Positions 19,347 through 40,776 of a stretch of DNA of 41,271 bases are shown in pieces. The notes beneath the pieces were generated by a model. It saw nothing but the letters and a program-made list of their open reading frames with translations, was not told the origin of the DNA and made no database searches. Position 1 is the stretch's first letter. The number at the start of each line of letters is the position of its first letter. The position numbers were made by a program, and so were the translations under genes. The stretch is from Bacteroidota bacterium. GTDB taxonomy: Bacteria; Bacteroidota; Ignavibacteria; UBA10030; UBA8401. The stretch lies in assembly GCA_021796215.1 (NCBI GenBank), contig JAJYOK010000026.1, positions 1 through 41,271 of the forward strand, given 5' to 3'.

Positions 19347-19634
19347 TTATAATTTTGCTGCAACGACCGCAACGTCTTTCATCGCACTCACGGTCCCGCC
19401 GAAATTATCCAGTGCTTCAAAGAGAATGATGTACATTCCGATGCGTACGCGCTCTCCTTTGTCATCTAACCCGTTCCAGATTATCGTCCCTGATGAAGAA
19501 GCCGGCTCATCGTTTGCCAGCAAGCGGACCAACCTTCCCGTCACGTCGTAAATGCGCAGTCGGATGGTTGCACTGTTCGTAGGAAGCGCATAATTGATGG
19601 AAAGAAAATCTTCAACGCCGTCCTTGTCCGGTGA
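19347..19634 (-). pseudogene. 3' remnant of a T9SS/FlgD-like surface protein gene, cut at the recombinase junction
   Basis: Read on the minus strand from 19634, the frame gives SPDKDGVEDFLSINYALP, then a C-terminal domain with IYDVTGRLVRLL, the WNGLDDKGERVRIGMYII turn and a final VAVVAAKL. This is the FlgD-like/T9SS type C-terminal domain that normally ends much larger secreted proteins after an SPNxDGxxD linker. Immediately upstream in the same frame there is a stop codon at 19635-19637, and unrelated recombinase sequence begins. The 5' part of the gene is therefore missing here, most simply because an element inserted. Confidence 0.75.
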
Positions 19635-21181
19635 TTAGTTGCCATCATTTTGATGGAGGGGGAAGGTGGCGAATTTGGTGTGTTTTGAGGCAACGGAGGC
19701 GGGGATGATAAATCATCAGGTGATTTTTCAGTCGGCGTAGCGGAAGGCATATAACAAAGCGATATGGTAACGTCTGACTTCCCGATAACGATTTTTTCAG
19801 TGATGGTTTCAATAACCTTCCGCTTGTCCTCATGGGTAAATTCCGACCACCGGCTGTAGAGATCCCGTGCCTCGTGGAGAATTTCATCGCTTGAAAGATA
19901 CTGAATCTTTAAGAAATCAATATTTGCCTGAAGGTCTGGGATTTGCTTGCCAAGCTGCTTGGAACGTTCATCCAGCGGATCGTAGTAGCGGCGAAACCCG
20001 TTGGGTGGAATATTGCCTGCTTGGTAAAGTCGCATAATATTGTCCATCTCTTTCTGGACTTTTTCTTGCTCGGAAACGAGGGTCTCGAATGCTTCTTTCT
20101 TTTCTTGGAGAGCAGTATGGGCTTTTTCCAAATGTTGTTTGATTTCTTGGTCCGAGAAGAGGAACGATTTTAGTTGCTCGTGAAAGATAGATTCCAAATC
20201 CATCGCCTCTATTTTATTCCGGCACTGCCGACAAACATATTTCGAGGAGTTCGACGGAACGTACATTTTTCCGCCGCAAGAACAAACCGCCACTCCGGCG
20301 AAGAGATGCACCGGCGAACGAGCGTACACTTTCCGCTTTTGGTGCTGCTCTTCGACAATTTGGTTGCATTGATTCCACAATTCTTCCGATACTATGGCGG
20401 GAACCCTATTGTAGATCCATTCTGATTCCGGCTTGATGATACATTCCTCATAATTCTTTCCACCGCGCCGGGTGTAATTACGGCGATGGAGACCTTTAGC
20501 CGTAGAATCGCTGATCAGCCGGTTGATGGACGTGTAGCCCCACTTTGTCCCTGTCCGTGTTCGATATCCACGCTCGTTGAGTATCCGGGCAACTTTCTTC
20601 TTCCTCCGGTGTTCGAGGTAGAGTTCGTAGATCAATTTTCTCACTGGTACTTCCTTGGGATCGGGAACGAGTTTCTTGTCAACCCAATGATATCCAAAAG
20701 GAGATTGGCCGCTTAAAGGTTTCCCCATCTGAGCTCGGATGGGTACTGAAGCAGCAACCCGGGAGGCAATCTCTTCCCGCTCCCACTGGGCCATCGCGGC
20801 AATCATCGTGTAAAAGAGGCGGCCGGCGGGACTCGAAGTGTCTATAGATTCCTGAAGAGAAATAAGATCCGCACCGCATGATCTGAAGATTTCTGAGAAT
20901 TCTAATAGCTCCTTTGTATTCCGAGCGAGGCGCGCCAATTTTGAAAAAATGAGTCCGCTGATCTCGCCCTTGCGGATATCCTCGAGCATCTGCTTCGCTT
21001 CGGGTCGATCCATGATTGCTTTTCCGCTCACCGCTTCAAGGCGGTATACTTTTTTTACTTCCCATCCTTTTGATTCTGCATACGCGCGGGCGCGGCGTTC
21101 GTGATGTTCAGGGCTCTCTCCTTTAACTTGGTCATCCGTTGAGACGCGAACCCAAATGCCAACCAATTTTTTAGAATCCAC
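19541..21181 (-). CDS. Large serine recombinase (site-specific integrase)
   Basis: This is an integrase of the large serine class. The N-terminal resolvase domain has the catalytic Ser14 in WVRVSTDDQ and the conserved FSKLARLARN and AAMAQWEREEIASR segments. It is followed by the Recombinase domain (about 165-270), a zinc ribbon (CSCGGKMYV...CRQC, about 300-325), a coiled coil (about 340-400) and a C-terminal strand region. At 546 residues it has full length. The last 30 or so residues, after KMMATN, are encoded by sequence that belongs in another frame to the adjacent T9SS remnant. The integrated form therefore probably carries a host-encoded tail. It is the presumed integration and excision enzyme of the element to its right. 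Confidence 0.9.
   Translation of the reverse strand: MDSKKLVGIWVRVSTDDQVKGESPEHHERRARAYAESKGWEVKKVYRLEAVSGKAIMDRPEAKQMLEDIRKGEISGLIFSKLARLARNTKELLEFSEIFRSCGADLISLQESIDTSSPAGRLFYTMIAAMAQWEREEIASRVAASVPIRAQMGKPLSGQSPFGYHWVDKKLVPDPKEVPVRKLIYELYLEHRRKKKVARILNERGYRTRTGTKWGYTSINRLISDSTAKGLHRRNYTRRGGKNYEECIIKPESEWIYNRVPAIVSEELWNQCNQIVEEQHQKRKVYARSPVHLFAGVAVCSCGGKMYVPSNSSKYVCRQCRNKIEAMDLESIFHEQLKSFLFSDQEIKQHLEKAHTALQEKKEAFETLVSEQEKVQKEMDNIMRLYQAGNIPPNGFRRYYDPLDERSKQLGKQIPDLQANIDFLKIQYLSSDEILHEARDLYSRWSEFTHEDKRKVIETITEKIVIGKSDVTISLCYMPSATPTEKSPDDLSSPPPLPQNTPNSPPSPSIKMMATNHRTRTALKIFFPSIMRFLRTVQPSDCAFTT
19622..19645. other. Probable attachment-site junction of an integrated element
   Basis: Host-gene coding sense ends at about 19634, and the recombinase frame is read without a break across this point. 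The junction lies within a few bases of the CACCGG motif read on the minus strand. The exact crossover dinucleotide cannot be set without the partner junction, which is outside the window. Confidence 0.5.
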
Positions 21182-29512: not shown

Positions 29513-30913
29513 TTACAAGAGCTTCCTCTGCCGCGTTTTGTCGCACTCTTCTTTTACATCAATAAAATAATCTCGCTTATATCTCATCAGAATCTTCGCT
29601 TCAACATCCTTTCTTAACACTCCATACTTCAATCGTGATTTTCTTATAATCTCTTCAACAAATGAATTCTCCGGTATTCTCACCGGCAGTGTCACCGCAC
29701 TGAAAGGCTGTGAGGTCACGCCGTTGATCATGAGTCGGAGATAGATGTGAAAGTTGGGGAGATTGACAAAGTCAGCGACGCCGAATGTCGGCTGAAACTC
29801 TGTAGCTAAATACCTCGCATCCTCTGCTCCGATCCTGAATGAAATAATCGTTCCGACATTGCCAAAGACAGCCGATCGCACTTTCTCATGCAATTGAGAA
29901 ATATACTGATGCGCGAAAATTAAATACAAACCATACTTCCGGCTTTCAGATAAAATGTCCGCAAAGGAAAGCGATACGAACGTGTGAAACTCATCGACAT
30001 ACAGATAAAACGATCTTCGTTTCTCAATCGGAACAGAAGCGCGGCTTGTCGCTGCAAGATAGATCATTGCTACAAGAAACGAACCCAAAACCATGCAGTT
30101 ATCTTCACCGATTGCTCCCTTGGAAAGATTCACGAGAAGAATCTTTCCCTCATCCATGATACTTCTGAGTTTGAAGCTGCTTTCCGGCTGTCCCACGATG
30201 TTCCTCAAGGGAAGGCTCGTCAGGAATTGTCCCATCTTATTTAAGATAGGTGCCGTCGCCTCAGAGCGGAGCCACTGGTTATATTTATCGAACTCATGAC
30301 TCCAGAACCGGCTCACCTCGATGCTCGTGAGATGACGAACCGCCTCCTGCCGGAACTCCGGTTCAGTCAGAAGCCTCGGAATATCGAGAAGCGTAGCACC
30401 AGGATATTCAAGGAGTGTCAGCAATGAATGCCTCAGGATATGCTCAAGTCTCGGTCCCCAGAACTCGAACCAGATCTTTTTGAAAACAGCGATCAGACCC
30501 GATACCACTAAGTGCTGTTGGTCGGGAGATATATTATAGAGAGGATTGAAGCCGATGGGGTAGTTCAAATCTCCCGGATTGAAGTAGATCACGTCTTTGA
30601 GCCGTTCTTTAGGAACTTGCTTGAGAAGCGTCTCAACCAAGTCCCCGTGCGGGTCAATGACAGCAATACCGTTGCCCTGTTTTATATCAGAGATTGCCAT
30701 TGTGGCGAGGAGATTTGACTTTCCCGTCCCTGTTTTTCCAATCAGATACATGTGCCCCCGCCGATTCTTCTCCTTGATGCCGAATTTCTTTCTGATGTCC
30801 CGCCAGTTTGTGACCGCAATGGGGGTGACCTGATGCTGTTCATCATTCATCCATGAATGATACGTCCGCACATTTTGGAAAGAAAAGAGGGGTTCTTTTG
30901 TCGCCTTGGGCAC
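29513..30913 (-). CDS. VirD4/TraD- or HerA-like DNA-pumping ATPase
   Basis: This 466-residue P-loop ATPase has Walker A GKTGTGKS (59-66), AVIDPHGDLVETLL, a Walker B region SFYLYVDEFHTFVS and a sensor-like FAHQYISQLHEKVRSAVFGNVGTIISFR. It belongs to the FtsK/HerA/TraD group used as coupling proteins for DNA transfer. No N-terminal membrane helices are visible, so it is a soluble form like those in many integrative elements. There is no relaxase or type IV channel gene in the window. The gene lies alone on the minus strand between plus-strand modules. Confidence 0.8.
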   Translation of the reverse strand: MPKATKEPLFSFQNVRTYHSWMNDEQHQVTPIAVTNWRDIRKKFGIKEKNRRGHMYLIGKTGTGKSNLLATMAISDIKQGNGIAVIDPHGDLVETLLKQVPKERLKDVIYFNPGDLNYPIGFNPLYNISPDQQHLVVSGLIAVFKKIWFEFWGPRLEHILRHSLLTLLEYPGATLLDIPRLLTEPEFRQEAVRHLTSIEVSRFWSHEFDKYNQWLRSEATAPILNKMGQFLTSLPLRNIVGQPESSFKLRSIMDEGKILLVNLSKGAIGEDNCMVLGSFLVAMIYLAATSRASVPIEKRRSFYLYVDEFHTFVSLSFADILSESRKYGLYLIFAHQYISQLHEKVRSAVFGNVGTIISFRIGAEDARYLATEFQPTFGVADFVNLPNFHIYLRLMINGVTSQPFSAVTLPVRIPENSFVEEIIRKSRLKYGVLRKDVEAKILMRYKRDYFIDVKEECDKTRQRKLL

Positions 30914-33631: not shown

Positions 33632-34252
33632 ATGAAGGAGATCAATATTTTTCCAACATCTGATAAGGCGATACGGCCTGCCTTGCGAGAGAATCTTCAA
33701 AAGATATATGGAGCTGATTCTACGACGAAGATTATCGAAGAGCTAGGACTCAAACACGGTGAAGCGCGAATTGATATTGCCGTTGTTAATGGAAGTATTC
33801 ACGGTTACGAATTGAAAAGTGACATCGACACTCTTCGTCGCCTGCCAGAACAAATGAGTGTTTATAATTCTGTTCTTGATTACGTGACATTGGTAGTCGG
33901 GAAAAACCATTTGCTCGATGCTTTCAATATGGTTCCTGAGTGGTGGGGTATCACCATCGCGAAGGCTTCTACTACTGGCGACAAGGTTTCTTTTTACTGC
34001 ATTCGCGAAGCCGATGAAAATCCGTACAAAAATAGTGTAGCGATAGCTAACCTGCTATGGAGAGATGAAGCGTTGTGTATATTGGAAGAAAAGGGAGAAG
34101 CAAGGGGGGTGCGGTCTAAATCAAGGCAAGTGTTGTACGAGAAACTTGCAGAAGTACTTAATCAGAACGAATTGAGAGCAAAAGTAAGAGAATATCTTTC
34201 CACTAGGGAATGTTGGCGATCAGGTGTGCCACTAATGACATGTGGTGATTGA
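33632..34252 (+). CDS. sce7726 family PD-(D/E)XK-like protein
   Basis: The 206-residue protein has the nuclease-like core EARIDIAVVNGSIHGYELKSDIDTLRRLPEQ, with Asp48, Glu60 and Lys62 as the D...E-x-K set. It then has VTLVVGKNHL and VPEWWGI, the hallmarks of the sce7726 family. Members are predicted restriction-like nucleases and are often found next to sce7725 or T4-beta-type proteins, as here. The 3' end overlaps the convergent T4-beta gene by 50 bases. The ribosome site is weak (AAGAAG before ATG). Confidence 0.8.
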   Translation: MKEINIFPTSDKAIRPALRENLQKIYGADSTTKIIEELGLKHGEARIDIAVVNGSIHGYELKSDIDTLRRLPEQMSVYNSVLDYVTLVVGKNHLLDAFNMVPEWWGITIAKASTTGDKVSFYCIREADENPYKNSVAIANLLWRDEALCILEEKGEARGVRSKSRQVLYEKLAEVLNQNELRAKVREYLSTRECWRSGVPLMTCGD

Positions 34253-35288
34253 TTCCTGCTCTAAGCCATGTTTCTGTGCTTCCGGTGCCTTTAACCAAGG
34301 GATTCTTCATATAGATTGGAAAGTGTTTTGCTTTAGCTGAAATATAGCTATCTCCACTCGAAAAGTTTTCACCGCAGTATCTATTGTCTTTTACGAGACT
34401 TGCTGCACTTGCCAAGTACAACTCGTGCCTTTGTTTTTTCCCTTTCATGATTAGCCAGTTCTCTTCTAACGTGTATTTTATGCTCGTCGTTGGTGGATAA
34501 AATTGTGTAGCTTCTTCATAGATTGGATGTTGAATAGTGTAATCAGCGAATGTGGGTTTTCGCCTCAGTTTTCTATCATTGAGAGAATCCTTCCAACTAA
34601 TCCACTCGATTCGAGGAATCAAATTCTCTTCTGCAAATTTACACTCTGATAAATCTTTTGGAAAAGAACCAGCGGCAAAGATGAAGGTTCTCCATTTTGA
34701 TAGTTGATGGATTTTCTGACTCAGATACAAATAGCGTAAATATTTATTGCTGTTTTCTTCGGTCTCTTTTATATCGACCAACAAATCAATATCCTTTTCT
34801 TCCAATCCAGATTTTGCTAACATAGCATTTAGGTCATTGCTGAGCTTGCCTTGATCCAAAAAATCGGTACATATAAGCCGTAAACAGAATCCTGATCCAG
34901 TCACTTTGGCTAGTTTAAAAGCCACTTTTTTTATTGCATCGTCATCATTGAGATGGATTACTGGAATAAAATTAGCTTTACTCTCGTGTCCTTTTTGTGA
35001 AACAGTTTCTAGACTTTTAACTTTCAAAGGCGTAGTAAAAAGGAGGCTGACATCAATAAATAACGGTTCTTTTCCCCATACCTCGATTAATTTATTAGGA
35101 ATTTCTTGTGCGAGTTTTTCAAATCGTGTGACAAGTTTTTCTAGGGTTTCATCGGATTTCGGTGTTGGCATTACAAATTGAATCAACGGAGTGATACAGT
35201 TTTTTCGCTCGGCGGATAATTCTTTGAGCGCTCCTTGTTCAGCGCGTTTCCACTTGAGGATTGGTACAAAATGATGCGAGTCAAACAT
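34203..35288 (-). CDS. T4-beta-protein family protein
   Basis: The 361-residue protein begins FVPILKWKRAEQGALKEL and has later TPLIQFVMP, LFIDVSLL, FIPVIHLNDDD and DIDLLVDIKE. This is the pattern of the 'beta family' proteins (T4 beta/sce7725-like), a TIM-barrel-like family of unknown activity found in defence and mobile contexts. ATG at 35288 starts one base after the stop of the HigA-ImmA gene, so translation is coupled; the longer frame to 35345 is unnecessary. It converges on the sce7726 gene, a recurrent partner. Confidence 0.75.
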   Translation of the reverse strand: MFDSHHFVPILKWKRAEQGALKELSAERKNCITPLIQFVMPTPKSDETLEKLVTRFEKLAQEIPNKLIEVWGKEPLFIDVSLLFTTPLKVKSLETVSQKGHESKANFIPVIHLNDDDAIKKVAFKLAKVTGSGFCLRLICTDFLDQGKLSNDLNAMLAKSGLEEKDIDLLVDIKETEENSNKYLRYLYLSQKIHQLSKWRTFIFAAGSFPKDLSECKFAEENLIPRIEWISWKDSLNDRKLRRKPTFADYTIQHPIYEEATQFYPPTTSIKYTLEENWLIMKGKKQRHELYLASAASLVKDNRYCGENFSSGDSYISAKAKHFPIYMKNPLVKGTGSTETWLRAGINHHMSLVAHLIANIP

Positions 35289-35289
35289 T

Positions 35290-36507
35290 TTATTTATTCC
35301 ATTTCTCATGAGTGAAACAATTTCGGACTTTCGATTCATTAACAATCTTGCTCAGGTAAGCATAATTGTTCCCTTTGTGCCTGATTTGTCCTGCAATAAT
35401 AGCAACGTGAATGCCGAGTTCTTTCGCAAGACTATTTGCCGCCATTGGGGAAGGAATGAGTCTCGCTGGGCTCATTTCCCATTTTGCTTTTGGTAAAAGT
35501 ATTTCCTCTGCCAATTTATCTGCCGCTTGTTCCCTGTCATCAAGGTTGATGGTTTTTATTCCTTCAAGATCATCAAAAAAGAGATTAATACCCGAATCGT
35601 AATGCAGGGATATGTGTGCCAATTCGTGCATCAATGTAAACCAGAAATTATCCAAGCGATCAAAGCGGAGAGTAAGTCCGATGATGGGATTATCTTTATC
35701 ACTCAGAATCGTAGCTCCGTCTAAATAGGTTTTAGCAAAGTGAGGCTCAATAACTAGGTTAATGCCGAATTCTTTCAGATATTCCTGAGCAAGAATTGGG
35801 CTTTTTTCTTGAGCGCTCAGTTTGACTAACTCTTGCAAAAATTTCTCGTTGACAGTGCCACGTCTATATTTTTTTGACGCCCGCATCTTCTGAGATTTTT
35901 TTACAACAAAAGCAGCCCAGACAGCTAATGCTCTTTTATCAGTGAGGGGAGATGAACGATAATTCGATTTTCGCAACATCCCTACAAATTGAGGTGGAGA
36001 ACCGAATTGCCCCCAAAAAGCATTAAGTAATTCTTCTTTGCTGTGTTTTTTAAAAGGATATTTGCCAAAGTAACCTCTTCGATCCATTTCTGAAACTAAG
36101 CGATCATCCCAACTCTGATAATCGAACTCATTGCCTGCGCCTGATTTTTGAATGAGCACTTTAGAAGGTATGCCAAGGCCGGCTTCTAAAGAGCGTACCA
36201 TCTCAAGAGTTAATGGCCTTTTTCTGGACAAAATTTCTGAAACCCTGCTTCGGCTGCCGAGGTACGGGACAAGATCATTTGGCTTCAAATTGTTCTGTTC
36301 CATTCGGAAAAGAATTGCCTCAATCGGATCAGGGAGGTTTTTTGGAAAAGTTCTTGATTCGTAATCGCTGACTAACGTGGTCAGCAGATCAAGTTTTTCT
36401 CCGTCTTCCGATTCTGGATCAGGGTTAGTATTCATTAGCCCTTGAATTAGTTTAAGAGCTTCTTCATGATCTTCTTTTGTATTTATTTTCTTAATTTTAA
36501 TAGTCAT
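35290..36507 (-). CDS. HigA-like antitoxin fused to an ImmA/IrrE metallopeptidase domain
   Basis: The 405-residue protein has an N-terminal HigA-type helical region and Xre helix-turn-helix (about 60-118, with LVPYLGSRSRVSEILSRKRPL). After a middle region comes an ImmA/IrrE zinc peptidase domain with FWFTLMHELAHISLHY, HELAH at 294-298, and a downstream DDREQAADKLAEEILLP glutamate helix. Such fusions can both repress the operon and cleave a regulator on stress. It follows the HigB-type toxin by seven bases, giving the toxin-first order typical of higBA, and precedes the T4-beta gene by one base. Confidence 0.85.
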   Translation of the reverse strand: MTIKIKKINTKEDHEEALKLIQGLMNTNPDPESEDGEKLDLLTTLVSDYESRTFPKNLPDPIEAILFRMEQNNLKPNDLVPYLGSRSRVSEILSRKRPLTLEMVRSLEAGLGIPSKVLIQKSGAGNEFDYQSWDDRLVSEMDRRGYFGKYPFKKHSKEELLNAFWGQFGSPPQFVGMLRKSNYRSSPLTDKRALAVWAAFVVKKSQKMRASKKYRRGTVNEKFLQELVKLSAQEKSPILAQEYLKEFGINLVIEPHFAKTYLDGATILSDKDNPIIGLTLRFDRLDNFWFTLMHELAHISLHYDSGINLFFDDLEGIKTINLDDREQAADKLAEEILLPKAKWEMSPARLIPSPMAANSLAKELGIHVAIIAGQIRHKGNNYAYLSKIVNESKVRNCFTHEKWNK

Positions 36508-36514
36508 GAATTCT

Positions 36515-36793
36515 TTACCATTTCATATATTCTTGGTGTGTTCCGACCTTTAATACTAGAACGATTTTATTTCTGTAATTTATTTGTGTGAGTAACCTAT
36601 ACCTATTCCCTTTGATATTGAAGACAACCTGATTGTCTCCAATAAAACTTGCGCTGCCGTACTGTTGCCTAACATCTTGGGGCAGTGACCAATCTGTGTC
36701 TTCAACTTCTGCCCCCCAAGAATCAATCTGAGAACAAGCATCGGGATGTTTTTCCTTGAAGTCTGCAAGCTTATCTCTGCCTATGATTTTCAT
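36515..36793 (-). CDS. higB: HigB-type toxin (RelE superfamily)
   Basis: The 92-residue protein matches the HigB mRNA-interferase type. It starts MKIIGRDKLADFKEKHPDA and has W...DVRQQYGSASFIGDNQVVFNIKGNRYRLLTQINYRNKIVLVLKVGTHQEYMKW, with the terminal H-x-x-Y. These toxins cut mRNA on the ribosome. The gene is first in an operon with the HigA/ImmA fusion. A strong promoter overlapped by a palindrome stands 30-70 bases upstream. Confidence 0.85.
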   Translation of the reverse strand: MKIIGRDKLADFKEKHPDACSQIDSWGAEVEDTDWSLPQDVRQQYGSASFIGDNQVVFNIKGNRYRLLTQINYRNKIVLVLKVGTHQEYMKW

Positions 36794-37398: not shown

Positions 37399-38790
37399 CT
37401 ACTTTGTTTGCCATAATCTTTCTGAAAAGGCTAATTTGGTTGGATTAGCGCAAAATGAGCAATTTGAATTCTTCACAATCTGTTGTCGCAAAGCTAAAAC
37501 CGGGGATGACCAAGGACTCAATCTAAAAGAGTTGTAGGTGTGAATGCCTGTCGAGATTCTTTGAACAAATTCAATTGCAAGGATCGCGCCGGCCAGGACT
37601 GAGATAAAAGCAAATGGAGCCAAGACATGAGACTCGCTTTTACTTATGATGGTACCTTTACCACAAAGCTCCTTAAAAAGCGTGTCATAGGATTGACCTT
37701 CTAAATCCCCCGGTTTGTATTGAGTATACTTTGAGCATATTCGAGTAGCGGCACTAGAGGAGATAGTCAATTGCTCGATATCCGAAAGCGCCACTCCGAG
37801 AAATTCAGCAACGTGATGTTCATGCACCTTTTCAAGGGTGTCAACAGGGTATGCGCACTCCAAGCACGCTAAGTTGCTAAGCGGTCTCTTATTGAAATGA
37901 AAAAATGCTTCTTGTATATCAGTAGTTGAAGCATCAAACGTTTCGTGTGGTATTTCTGAGTTCAAACTTCGCCTTGCCCTTCTACTATCCACTGCAACTA
38001 CTAACCGATCGAGCCAGGCACCACCTTTTGCTTTCTGAGGTATTGACGATAAAGTGCCTTCATGTGGAGTCAGAACAATTTTTGAGAATTGTGGCTGAGC
38101 CACACGTGCAAGCACTCCAGCTTTATTGTTCCCGACTTCTGATGCATCAAACCAGAGGCACCGGTTTAGATTCCCATCGCTAACCTTATCAGCATCACAA
38201 ACAAAAATCTGTCCCGCCAATTTAAACGTTTGCAAAGTATAGAGAAAAGCGTTGCCTATCGCCCCTGCACCCGCCAAGTACACCTTCCCGATGTCCGTTT
38301 GCTTCTCGAGAAAATCCATATTTGGGAAGAGGACCTCAAAATCGATATTTATTTCTGCAGGGGAAGGGAGTAATTTGATAGAAGATCCAAGAAATTGTCT
38401 CATGGTGAATGCGACAATATAGCAGGCGGTGACAATCTGAAATGCCTCGTGGAGCTCAAATACACGAGATTCCTTTGTTGGCTTATTTTGAGAAATTACT
38501 AGTTTTCCAAAGTCGCCAAATCTGACAAATGTGTGAATACACTGGGTGCGCTCGGGTATATTGCCAATTACGATTTCACAGGAAATTTCATCTGAGAGTT
38601 TCGTGGTAATATTGGCGAACGTTCTCGAAAGTATTTTCTCCAAATGATGGGTTAGCTTCGAAGCAATTTGATTACTATCATCGTAGGTTATGAGAATTGT
38701 TTCTGAAAGAAGTGTTTCGGCTTCTTCTTCGGCAAGACCAAGAATGCTTGTTAAAGTCAACTTGTTTTCATCGTGGGCAGTTAATGCCAT
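37399..38790 (-). CDS. E1-like (ThiF-family) ubiquitin-activating enzyme
   Basis: This 463-residue protein has an N-terminal domain of about 165 residues that I do not recognise, followed by a ThiF/E1 adenylation domain. The domain shows the nucleotide loop VYLAGAGAIGN (GAGAIG at 174-179), VCDADKV (Asp199, Asp201), NLNR (207-210), Lys223 and VVAVDSRRARR (Asp268), all the ATP-binding positions. A CLEC (309-312) and CSFC (444-447) pair should bind zinc. The catalytic Cys that would form a thioester is not certain. It would adenylate the Ubl encoded upstream. It is the last gene of the operon, 13 bases after the JAMM gene. Confidence 0.85.
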   Translation of the reverse strand: MALTAHDENKLTLTSILGLAEEEAETLLSETILITYDDSNQIASKLTHHLEKILSRTFANITTKLSDEISCEIVIGNIPERTQCIHTFVRFGDFGKLVISQNKPTKESRVFELHEAFQIVTACYIVAFTMRQFLGSSIKLLPSPAEINIDFEVLFPNMDFLEKQTDIGKVYLAGAGAIGNAFLYTLQTFKLAGQIFVCDADKVSDGNLNRCLWFDASEVGNNKAGVLARVAQPQFSKIVLTPHEGTLSSIPQKAKGGAWLDRLVVAVDSRRARRSLNSEIPHETFDASTTDIQEAFFHFNKRPLSNLACLECAYPVDTLEKVHEHHVAEFLGVALSDIEQLTISSSAATRICSKYTQYKPGDLEGQSYDTLFKELCGKGTIISKSESHVLAPFAFISVLAGAILAIEFVQRISTGIHTYNSFRLSPWSSPVLALRQQIVKNSNCSFCANPTKLAFSERLWQTK

Positions 38791-38803
38791 GTTGGTCTAG
38801 GAA

Positions 38804-39256
38804 TTAACAGAATTTCACACAATCATGTATGTTGACTTGTTTCCATTCGTCGTTATCCGACAACCGAAAGCAAGCCACCTCGTCGAAAAAGTTCTCTAGA
38901 GTTGTATCAAATGCAAAATTAGGTAAGACCAAGGAAATTGCTCCTTCGTGCCTAGGCACGGCAAGACAATCGTCCGTATACGAATGAAATGCCTTCTCTG
39001 GATGCGAATGAACTTGAGCAGCAACCATAAGTCTTTCAGCTCTTACCTTATCGAAAATCTCTTTCATTCCCTTTTGGGGAATGCGGATTGAAACCTCTGT
39101 TGCTTTTTGTCGTGGTAGGAGCAGTTCGTGGATAGCAATCTCGGCTTTTTTACGTTGACCTAACCATAAAACCATTCGCTCACTGGAGCTATTGCCCGCA
39201 TCTTGTAAGAGTTTAATAGTATCCTCGACAATTATTTTCTGGACTGAGATTTTCAT
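38804..39256 (-). CDS. JAB/JAMM-family deubiquitinase-like metalloprotease
   Basis: The 150-residue protein has the JAMM zinc site: Glu26 in SSSERMVLWLG and VHSHPEKAFHSYTDD with His83, His85, Ser92 and Asp95. The spacing is H-x-H-x6-S-x2-D, one residue shorter than in many members, so the fold is kept but not the textbook count. It would trim the Ubl precursor or remove Ubl from targets. ATG at 39256 is chosen because it overlaps the E2-like stop as ATGA (39253-39256); in-frame starts further up add only eight residues. Confidence 0.85.
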   Translation of the reverse strand: MKISVQKIIVEDTIKLLQDAGNSSSERMVLWLGQRKKAEIAIHELLLPRQKATEVSIRIPQKGMKEIFDKVRAERLMVAAQVHSHPEKAFHSYTDDCLAVPRHEGAISLVLPNFAFDTTLENFFDEVACFRLSDNDEWKQVNIHDCVKFC

Positions 39257-39693
39257 TGTGATGATTTCCATGCGCTCCAAACTCTAGTCAAGATCCCTCC
39301 CAGATCATAGCCCGACTTGTTCTTATAGTTATCCCACTTATCAGAAATGTGACTGCTGTGCTCATGATATTCCCTGACTCCGGGTATGCACAGAAATGGT
39401 CTTTTAGTTATGGGATGTAGTGAGTTATTGAACACGCTGTGACCTTGTCCTTGCGGAAATTTGGCGAGAGGAGTGCCTGTTTGGTCGAGCAGATCAATAG
39501 AAGGAGGTAGGTCATCCCATTCGTCACAAAGCATTTTTATTATGATAGGTGGCCTACCGTTGGATGAAAACTCAACTTCCATTCTTGGGAATGACAATGT
39601 AACGATTTTCCAAGATCGAACTGAGAGCAAGGTAGCATCCGAGCAGAACTTCGTCTGAATTTTGAATATTTCTTCCGAGAGCTCACTGTTCAT
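39253..39693 (-). CDS. E2-like ubiquitin-conjugating protein
   Basis: The 146-residue protein has a UBC-like strand order and a C-terminal block HPITKRPFLCIPGVREYHEHSSH, then DKWDNYKNKSGYDLGGILTRVW. Cys102 in P-F-L-C is the candidate thioester-forming Cys. The HP (93-94), Tyr109-His110 and His112 and His115 around it are the conserved surroundings seen in prokaryotic E2-like families of Ubl operons. ATG at 39693 overlaps the Ubl stop as ATGA (39690-39693). No E3 is visible, as is usual for these systems. Confidence 0.75.
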   Translation of the reverse strand: MNSELSEEIFKIQTKFCSDATLLSVRSWKIVTLSFPRMEVEFSSNGRPPIIIKMLCDEWDDLPPSIDLLDQTGTPLAKFPQGQGHSVFNNSLHPITKRPFLCIPGVREYHEHSSHISDKWDNYKNKSGYDLGGILTRVWSAWKSSQ

Positions 39694-39962
39694 AACAAAA
39701 AGCCGCCGCCGGTTTGGCGTGGTCCCCAGTCGATGAAGAATTCGCCTGCCAAATTGTTTTCCAGATAGCTCTTATCGATATCTATTATTTTGCCGCCAAC
39801 TTGAGCGATCCACCCATCAGTCGAAGTTATCTTCAATTCTTTTGCTGCTTTTTCTATTTCTATCCTAATTTTTTGATGTGCGGGGACTTTGTTGTAACCG
39901 CTGCTTGGATAGGCTCCACTCGTAGTTACAACCGCAACTTCTATAAATTGTTCTTTTTCCAT
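39690..39962 (-). CDS. Ubiquitin-like protein with GGG-F-L-L precursor tail
   Basis: The 90-residue protein is of beta-grasp size. It has an N-terminal hairpin (EVAVVTTSG, KVPAHQKIRIEIEKAAKEL), a middle WIAQVGGKIIDIDKSYLENNL and a C-terminus WGPRQTGGGFLL. The Gly85-87 motif followed by three more residues looks like a ubiquitin precursor that must be trimmed before activation, for which the operon's JAMM protease is the candidate. AAGGA six bases upstream supports the start. The downstream genes encode E2-, JAMM- and E1-like proteins, all overlapping or nearly so. It is one Ubl domain, unlike the tandem-Ubl forms of some systems. Confidence 0.75.
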   Translation of the reverse strand: MEKEQFIEVAVVTTSGAYPSSGYNKVPAHQKIRIEIEKAAKELKITSTDGWIAQVGGKIIDIDKSYLENNLAGEFFIDWGPRQTGGGFLL

Positions 39963-39983
39963 AATTGTTCCTTATGTTGATTA

Positions 39984-40652
39984 TTATTGTCCTTTTGGTT
40001 TTTTTATAACCCGTACGACCTTTCCGCTGATAGTGAAATCATCATCTGGGTGAAGATGGATAGGCTCATAATCGAAAGACGAATCAGCTTTCAATACGAT
40101 TTGTCCATGCTCTCGGTCATTAATGACTCTCTTGATTGTTCCTTTGTTGTCTATGATTGCCAAAACGACATCATTGGTTCGAACATTCAAATCGTTTTTG
40201 TCTAGAATCGCATAATCCCCATCTTCAATTTGTTTCCCGTCAATTTCTGCTCTGTTCATCGATGAACCACTCGCCTTAATGGCGTAAAGACCTGTCGGTT
40301 TGGAACGTCCGACTAATTTACTTGAGACGCGCAGAAAACCCTCGAAATTTTCTTCCGCAAAAATGGTGGCTGGACCACAGTTTGCTGTACCTACTATTGG
40401 GATGGAGAAGAGGTGTGTTGTTTTCTTCAGGAGACCTTTGGCCCAATCCGGAGTGGTGGATGACCGTCCCATCATTCCTTTCGCACGATCTATAGAAAGA
40501 AATCCCTTCTTCTGCAACTGAAGAAGGTGGTGTTTTATCTTCTGCGGTGATTCGTGAGGCAAACCGATCTCTCGAGCCATATCACGAAGACTCAGTTTCG
40601 CAAGGTTCTCTCTCTTAGAGAGAGAAAGTAATCGTTCTTGAATTATGTGCAT
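39984..40652 (-). CDS. LexA-like self-cleaving repressor (S24 family)
   Basis: The 222-residue protein has an N-terminal winged helix (SLRDMAREIGLPHESPQKIKHHLLQL). Its C-terminal S24 domain has the scissile-type bond at Cys92-Gly93 (IVGTANCGPA), catalytic Ser131 (KASGSSMNRA) and Lys174 (GTIKRVI). LexA uses Ala-Gly; Cys-Gly is used in several phage and island repressors. It should respond to DNA damage through RecA and release the operon, whose Ubl gene starts 21 bases downstream. ATG at 40652 has no ribosome site and lies just where a -10 box predicts the transcript to begin. Confidence 0.85.
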   Translation of the reverse strand: MHIIQERLLSLSKRENLAKLSLRDMAREIGLPHESPQKIKHHLLQLQKKGFLSIDRAKGMMGRSSTTPDWAKGLLKKTTHLFSIPIVGTANCGPATIFAEENFEGFLRVSSKLVGRSKPTGLYAIKASGSSMNRAEIDGKQIEDGDYAILDKNDLNVRTNDVVLAIIDNKGTIKRVINDREHGQIVLKADSSFDYEPIHLHPDDDFTISGKVVRVIKKPKGQ

Positions 40653-40687: not shown

Positions 40688-40705
40688 GTAAGTCCTTAAA
40701 ACTTG
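40685..40705. promoter_or_regulatory. Candidate operator between divergent promoters
   Basis: CAAGT (40685-40689) and ACTTG (40701-40705) form an inverted repeat with an 11-base centre. It covers the -35 regions of both the minus-strand LexA-like promoter and the plus-strand DUF3892 promoter, so one bound dimer could control both. The candidate ligand is the LexA-like protein. Confidence 0.4.
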
Positions 40706-40731
40706 ACAAAAATAGTCTGGTTTATTATCTT
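40703..40731 (+). promoter_or_regulatory. Promoter of the DUF3892 gene
   Basis: TTGACA (40703-40708), a 17-base spacer and TATCTT (40726-40731) precede the gene at 40777 and diverge from the Ubl operon promoter. Confidence 0.55.
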
Positions 40732-40776
40732 CATAACAAAAGTCGTTTTCAAATGTCGCAAAAAGGAGAAGAAATT

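What the first reader, a model, noticed from the sequence alone, without database searches (positions are those of the whole stretch)
37399..40652. Compact ubiquitin-like conjugation operon under a LexA-like repressor
Seen: minus-strand genes for a LexA-like protein, a 90-residue Ubl ending GGGFLL, an E2-like protein with a candidate Cys102, a JAMM protease and a ThiF/E1-like protein. Ubl-E2 and E2-JAMM overlap by ATGA. Known: related bacterial Ubl-E1-E2-DUB operons (the Bil and Bub types) have been linked to antiviral defence, some by modifying phage structural proteins. Inferred: this is a relative with a single Ubl domain, gene order Ubl-E2-JAMM-E1, no E3, and DNA-damage-linked control. The repressor in front is not a part of those systems that I recall, and it would tie Ubl conjugation to SOS-like stress.
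Basis: partly seen in the sequence, partly recalled or inferred. Interest (0 to 1): 0.92.

Follow-up and report, generated by a model that had tools for sequence, protein, structure and literature searches.

The report
LexA-controlled bacterial ubiquitin-like conjugation operon
This is a complete bacterial ubiquitin-like protein-tagging operon of the known anti-phage Bil type, but with a LexA-type (self-cleaving) repressor gene in front of it; the same small repressor clade also sits in front of a second, diverged tagging operon and a CBASS immune operon, which suggests a so far undescribed class of DNA-damage switch for bacterial immunity.

Summary
The genes are real and correctly placed. Four form a standard BilABCD operon: beta-grasp Ubl (bilA), CEHH E2 (bilB), JAMM protease (bilC), E1 (bilD). 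Their catalytic residues match the solved Bil system one for one, and Ubl-E2-JAMM-E1 is the usual Bil order. The single Ubl and missing E3 are not new. The window belongs to a well-supported 'short-E2' Bil clade.

The unusual part is the LexA-like gene 21 bp upstream. It keeps the Cys-Gly cleavage site and Ser/Lys dyad and is the only S24-domain gene found in its genome. In the 98 genomes held for the order its clade has exactly three members (100/100, apart from canonical LexAs). They stand before this Bil operon, a very different Bil-like operon and a CBASS operon: 3 of 3, against 0 of 80 other LexA/S24 loci checked. In the closest Bil relative an unrelated LexA lies divergently upstream. 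[quoted passage not shown] I found no report of a LexA-type one.

Most likely: LexA-like represses; RecA-ssDNA triggers self-cleavage; Ubl conjugation is induced. Repression, operator and RecA dependence are inferred.

The parts
39984..40652 (-). lexA-like repressor gene (222 aa): N-terminal winged HTH plus S24 domain; predicted cleavage site C92-G93, catalytic Ser131 and Lys174
   Evidence: Pfam S24 8.6e-19 and LexA_DNA_bind 2.7e-5; alignments with E. coli LexA and relatives keep the Gly, Ser and Lys; only S24 domain found in the genome
39690..39962 (-). bilA: ubiquitin-like modifier, 90 aa, C-terminal tail TGGGFLL to be trimmed behind the glycines
   Evidence: AF2 beta-grasp model, hits SUMO and BilA 8tyx; 52% identical to the single-Ubl BilA of L012
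39253..39693 (-). bilB: E2 with CEHH motif C102, E108, H110, H115; overlaps bilA by ATGA
   Evidence: Metal_CEHH 1.1e-9; phmmer to BilB 8tyz aligns C102 with Cys138; C, E, H, H invariant in 30 sequences; fold TM 0.77 to BilB
38804..39256 (-). bilC: JAMM deubiquitinase-like protease, E26, H83, H85, S92, D95; overlaps bilB by ATGA
   Evidence: PADLOC BilC 6.7e-13; phmmer to BilC 8tyx 4.8e-15, E26 opposite the E33A position; alignment
37399..38790 (-). bilD: E1 with N-terminal E1-N domain, ThiF adenylation domain and catalytic Cys376
   Evidence: ThiF 9.4e-14 and E1-N 2.2e-10; phmmer to BilD 8tyz 4.4e-11, C376 opposite Cys417; Cys invariant
40724..40752 (-). candidate promoter TTGAAA-17-GATAAT upstream of lexA-like (lead only; count not above chance)
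40696..40709 (-). candidate operator half-site TTGTCAAGTTTTAA, same as one arm of the dyad before the CBASS-linked relative in G420 (lead only)

Best explanation
A five-gene transcription unit, lexA-like followed by bilABCD. BilC trims BilA behind its glycine run; BilD adenylates BilA and carries it on Cys376; BilB takes it on Cys102 and conjugates it to lysines of targets, by analogy with studied Bil systems phage virion proteins; BilC can reverse this. The LexA-like protein is a dedicated, autoregulated repressor of the unit. When phage infection or DNA damage yields RecA-ssDNA filaments it cleaves itself at Cys92-Gly93 (Ser131/Lys174) and frees transcription. It belongs to a small LexA-like clade that serves as an exchangeable immune-operon controller, playing the part that CapW, CapH+CapP or CapK+CapS play elsewhere. 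Shown by sequence or structure comparison: gene order, catalytic residues, folds, Bil kinship, the repressor clade and its repeated position before immune operons. Inferred: conjugation, targets, repression, operator, RecA-stimulated cleavage, phage defence.
For: Catalytic residues match solved Bil one for one (residue roles from PMC11354881). Structures. Conserved order. LexA-like keeps cleavage site and dyad and ends 21 bp before bilA. Its clade has exactly 3 members in the 98 genomes held for the order, 368-398 bits against 88 for the next, and is 100/100 apart from canonical LexAs. All three precede immune operons: Bil (window), a diverged Bil-like operon (L123), CBASS with SMODS cyclase and 2TM/SLATT effector (L156). 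None of 80 other LexA/S24 loci has such a recognisable neighbour. The repressors (42-49% identical) are more alike than the Ubl operons behind two of them (E1 29% over 126 aa, Ubl no match), so controller and operon have been exchanged. In the nearest Bil relative, L012, another LexA lies divergently upstream. Other Bil operons carry HTH plus ImmA/IrrE (L009, L022) or WYL (L008) genes there. RecA is present.
Against: No operator is established: the window promoter has no significant dyad and the shared half-site could be chance. Only three clade members were found, all in one order; none in viral contigs at close similarity, plasmids or phages. A LexA-like protein that works without RecA is known (IrvR, abstract of PMC7101444). 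Nothing here tests conjugation or defence. The E2 of the G191 operon lacks the full CEHH motif, so that operon is only Bil-like.
Confidence: 0.72

Rival explanations
1. The LexA-like protein is the host's general LexA, the SOS master repressor, and stands next to bilABCD by accident or controls it as one of many SOS genes.
For: It is the only S24-domain gene found in a genome rated 100% complete, and the two genus mates have none, so it could have taken over the SOS role.
Against: Its two clade mates live beside a canonical LexA in their genomes (G191:C6:74865 and G420:C122:33545). The clade is separate from canonical LexAs and sits before immune operons 3 of 3 times. The candidate half-site is not near recA within 2 mismatches. 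The gene is missing from its genus mates.
Confidence: 0.15
2. The LexA-like protein controls the operon, but is released without RecA, by another protease or a direct ligand or phage signal, as reported for IrvR.
For: IrvR of Streptococcus mutans is a LexA-like exception to the RecA rule (abstract of PMC7101444); the clade differs from LexA by insertions around the catalytic Ser.
Against: Cleavage site and Ser/Lys dyad are kept in all three members, or Ala-Gly in place of Cys-Gly in G420, and RecA is present.
Confidence: 0.2
3. The operon is a real Ubl conjugation system, but serves a general stress response or modifies host proteins, not phage defence.
For: The authors of PMC13373217 note that the related Bub operons have not been shown to protect against phage and that the line between stress and immune pathways is fuzzy.
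Against: It is Bil, for which anti-phage function is published, not Bub; it lies beside a PD-Lambda-2 type defence system and its repressor clade also precedes CBASS.
Confidence: 0.2
4. Neighbourhood by chance: the LexA-like gene has nothing to do with bilABCD.
For: The gene is absent before nearly all other Bil operons.
Against: Same strand and 21 bp gap; three clade members out of three stand directly before immune operons with gaps of 13-31 bp.
Confidence: 0.05

Closest known systems
Bil system (BilABCD; solved complexes 8tyx to 8tz0)
   Same: Gene order, four protein families, all catalytic residues, glycine tail on the Ubl, no E3
   Different: Short-E2 clade (about 145 aa against about 205 aa); E1 only about 21% identical to the long-E2 example L011; LexA-like repressor gene upstream
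CapW/BrxR, CapH+CapP and CapK+CapS controllers (PMC13373217)
   Same: Regulator gene before Bil, Bub, CBASS and other immune operons; exchangeable between operons; DNA damage as the (here inferred) signal
   Different: Single LexA-type protein with S24 self-cleaving domain; no WYL, ImmA/IrrE protease or kinase; the signal would pass through RecA filaments
LexA (SOS repressor)
   Same: Winged HTH plus S24 domain, Cys-Gly site, Ser/Lys dyad
   Different: 27% identical to E. coli LexA; below the TIGR00498 cut-off; separate clade; coexists with canonical LexA in G191 and G420; sits before immune operons
Bub (bacterial ubiquitination-like) operons
   Same: Ubl, E1, E2 and protease cassette, often behind a DNA-damage controller
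   Different: All sequence and fold evidence here points to Bil; the Bub papers could not be read, so Bub features were not tested

Membership tests
Bil (BilABCD) | Ubl, E2, JAMM and E1 genes in the order bilABCD | tested here: met
Bil (BilABCD) | E2 with CEHH motif (Cys138, Glu144, His146, His151 of BilB) | tested here: met
   C102, E108, H110, H115, same spacing (PMC11354881)
Bil (BilABCD) | E2 with UBC fold like solved BilB | tested here: met
   AF2 model, TM 0.77 to 8tz0_C, the only strong hits
Bil (BilABCD) | BilA with beta-grasp domain(s) and C-terminal glycine processed by BilC | tested here: inconclusive
   Beta-grasp and GGG tail met; processing not testable here
Bil (BilABCD) | E1 with inactive and active adenylation parts and a Cys domain (Cys417) | tested here: met
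   E1-N, ThiF, C376 opposite Cys417; domain folds not modelled
Bil (BilABCD) | JAMM active site | tested here: met
   E26, H83, H85, S92, D95
Bil (BilABCD) | Conjugates Ubl to targets and protects against phage | not testable with these tools
   Needs bench work
LexA / S24 self-cleaving repressors | S24 domain with cleavage site and Ser/Lys dyad, HTH DNA-binding domain | tested here: met
Canonical LexA (TIGR00498 equivalog) | Score above the curated cut-off; grouping with LexAs of related genomes | tested here: not met
   78.8 bits against 110.95; separate 100/100 clade
CapW, CapH+CapP, CapK+CapS | WYL protein; HTH plus ImmA/IrrE; or GHKL kinase plus STAS repressor before the operon | tested here: not met
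   The gene before bilA has only LexA-type HTH and S24 domains
Bub | Bub-specific enzyme features | not tested
   Defining papers not held

The most novel reading that the evidence does not exclude
A fourth class of DNA-damage-responsive immune controllers: a LexA-like clade, distinct from housekeeping LexA, exchanged between Bil, Bil-like and CBASS operons and coupling them to RecA-ssDNA by self-cleavage.
Probability: 0.6. Interest if true: 0.75.

Novelty: new variant of a known kind. Interest (0 to 1): 0.64.

Why it matters
How costly immune operons are kept silent and then switched on is an open question. Three controller types that respond to ssDNA or DNA damage are published for Bub, Bil and CBASS operons. 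A LexA-type controller would join bacterial ubiquitin-like conjugation to the best understood damage signal, RecA, through a single gene, and can be tested with a reporter and one mutation (S131A). It would also show that bacteria filled the same regulatory slot with unrelated damage sensors several times, including a second, independent LexA in Acidobacteria.

Tried and rejected
Reading the E2 only as a metal-binding protein, as its Pfam name suggests: rejected, since CEHH is the catalytic motif of BilB and the fold matches BilB. A novel gene order or a novel single Ubl: rejected, both known. Orthology of the window's and L012's LexA: rejected by the tree, though L012 has a long branch. Operator search: one dyad stands out in the CBASS-linked relative (1 of 200 shuffles as good), none in the window, G191 or L012; the shared half-site stays a lead. 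The first genome-contig scan with one protein found nothing; the alignment scan gave 80 loci. Viral contigs: no Bil relative; LexA hits there were distant S24 proteins at 26-28%. Phages: no match for the E2 or for the LexA-like protein. PF14455 in 395 genomes of the phylum: only the window genome. Centring a genome search on the Acidobacteria locus was not possible, so LexA-like members outside this phylum were sought only in plasmids, phages and viral contigs. The host organism was not identified.
Full report
OBSERVATION. The five minus-strand genes are present as described. The lexA-like gene runs 40652-39984; bilA 39962-39690; bilB 39693-39253; bilC 39256-38804; bilD 38790-37399. bilA/bilB and bilB/bilC overlap by ATGA; lexA-like and bilA are 21 bp apart, bilC and bilD 13 bp. 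Pfam gives ThiF plus E1-N for the last gene, a sub-threshold Prok-JAB, Metal_CEHH for the E2-like protein, nothing for the Ubl, and Peptidase_S24 plus LexA_DNA_bind for the first gene.

THE CONJUGATION CASSETTE IS A BIL OPERON. By sequence the best PDB matches of E2, JAMM and E1 are BilB, BilC and BilD of one solved system. The alignments place C102 on Cys138 and C376 on Cys417, the catalytic residues named in PMC11354881, and E26 on the residue mutated in the BilC E33A entry. The CEHH residues (C102, E108, H110, H115) are invariant in 30 BilB sequences; the JAMM residues and the E1 Cys are conserved in their families. The Ubl has no sequence match in the PDB, but its model is a beta-grasp whose hits are SUMO and BilA 8tyx; the E2 model matches only BilB strongly (TM 0.77). 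Related operons were found on Rhizobium and Bradyrhizobium plasmids and in 80 genome contigs from Pseudomonadota, Acidobacteriota, Actinomycetota, Gemmatimonadota and others; most keep the order A-B-C-D. Single-Ubl and multi-Ubl BilA both occur, also among solved structures (98-aa 8tyx, 243-aa 8u38). So gene order, single Ubl and lack of an E3 are ordinary for Bil.

A SHORT-E2 CLADE. BilB comes in two sizes, about 145 and about 205 aa, the longer one with an insertion before the CEHH motif. In an E1 tree the 17 rows with a short E2, the window included, form one group (100/100), with the window next to two Acidobacteria MAGs (99/95). Whether this clade has been named before I could not check: the primary Bil and Bub papers are not held.

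THE LEXA-LIKE GENE. The protein keeps the Cys92-Gly93 site, Ser131 and Lys174. It is the only S24-domain gene found in its genome; the two genus mates have none, while most genomes of the order have one. RecA is present. The Bil E1 is missing from the other 21 genomes of the family, so the operon was probably acquired by horizontal transfer (inference).

RECURRENCE. A profile of the LexA-like clade finds three members in the 98 genomes held for the order, at 368-398 bits; the next best match has 88 bits. A search of 391 genomes of the class found no fourth member at that level. The second member (G191, locus L123) ends 31 bp before an 86-aa Ubl ending GGGV, followed by an E2-like protein, a JAMM protease and an E1. 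PADLOC names the latter three BilB, BilC and BilD, but the E2 lacks the full CEHH motif and the E1 falls outside the window's clade on a very long branch, so I call it Bil-like. The third member (G420, locus L156) ends 13 bp before a DUF2188 protein, followed by a SMODS cyclase and a 2TM/SLATT effector: a CBASS operon. The three repressors form a 100/100 clade apart from all canonical LexAs sampled. They are 42-49% identical, while the Ubl cassettes behind two of them share 29% over 126 residues of the E1 and no detectable Ubl similarity; this points to exchange of a controller between operons. None of 80 other LexA/S24 loci from these searches has a recognisable Bil or CD-NTase neighbour. Fisher's test on 3 of 3 against 0 of 80 would give about 1e-5, but most control loci show only about 1.5 kb on each side, some are duplicates, and the neighbour search used few queries, so this is only a guide.

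A SECOND, INDEPENDENT LEXA. In L012, the closest Bil relative, a LexA with an intact dyad is transcribed divergently from bilA, 77 bp away. It is not in the window's clade. No other related Bil locus held then had a LexA match, though a few contigs end just before bilA (for example L018). Elsewhere the slot holds HTH plus ImmA/IrrE genes (L009, L022), a WYL gene (L008) or an Xre/RES toxin-antitoxin pair (L010/L013).

LITERATURE. PMC13373217 (Chambers et al. 2026) describes CapK+CapS, and cites CapW/BrxR and CapH+CapP, as DNA-damage-responsive controllers next to Bub, Bil, CBASS and other operons; the word LexA does not occur in it. Searches for LexA together with CBASS, Bil or immune operons found no report of a LexA-type controller of such an operon. 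The library holds only open papers, so absence is not proof.

MECHANISM. Shown: anatomy, catalytic residues, folds, kinship, recurrence. Inferred from known LexA and Bil biochemistry: repression of its own promoter and so of bilABCD, release by RecA-stimulated self-cleavage, processing and conjugation of BilA, phage defence. A candidate promoter (40752-40724; count not above chance) and half-site (40709-40696) exist; the half-site matches one arm of a near-perfect 25-bp dyad before the CBASS-linked relative. By my rough estimate such a shared 14-mer could arise by chance, so it is only a lead. RecA-independent release is a real alternative (IrvR, abstract of PMC7101444).

VERDICT. The cassette is a new member of Bil; the controller is a new variant of immune-operon control. 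The interest rests on the controller.

Noticed in passing
window 34203-36793: Beside the Bil operon lies a three-gene PD-Lambda-2 type system (HigB-like toxin, HTH/ImmA protein, Beta protein; PADLOC 4e-39, 2e-140, 2e-36), with an sce7726/cll-like gene at 33632-34252 beyond it.
   Followed up: no
window 19541-21181 and 29513-30913: A large serine recombinase and a TraD/HerA-like ATPase (MADS8-like in PADLOC) suggest a mobile element or defence island.
   Followed up: no
L123 6641-10014 (G191): Diverged Ubl-E2-JAMM-E1 operon behind a LexA-like gene; its E2 has a CICAPFSRKAY stretch without the usual E and H of CEHH.
   Followed up: partly
L156 766-7122 (G420): CBASS operon (DUF2188, SMODS cyclase, 2TM/SLATT effector, 1265-aa protein without family match) behind a LexA-like gene with a near-perfect 25-bp dyad in its promoter.
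   Followed up: partly
whole genomes G000, G006, G007: The host genus seems to have lost canonical LexA while most of its order keeps an S24 protein.
   Followed up: partly
L007 3960-5830: In Bradyrhizobium septentrionale an IS110 element lies where bilA and bilB should be; only the later part of bilC was seen, bilD is intact.
   Followed up: no
L006 4538-5396: In Bradyrhizobium barranii the annotated bilA leaves the family frame before its glycine tail and overlaps bilB, suggesting a frameshift.
   Followed up: no
L013-L017 and L020, upstream of bilA: A conserved Xre/ParS plus RES-domain toxin-antitoxin pair stands divergently upstream of bilA (annotated in L010/L013).
   Followed up: no
L029, L030, L038: Bil operons of Acidobacteria and a gammaproteobacterium with no bilC found between bilB and bilD; in L030 and L038 a JAMM gene lies some kilobases away on the other strand.
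   Followed up: no
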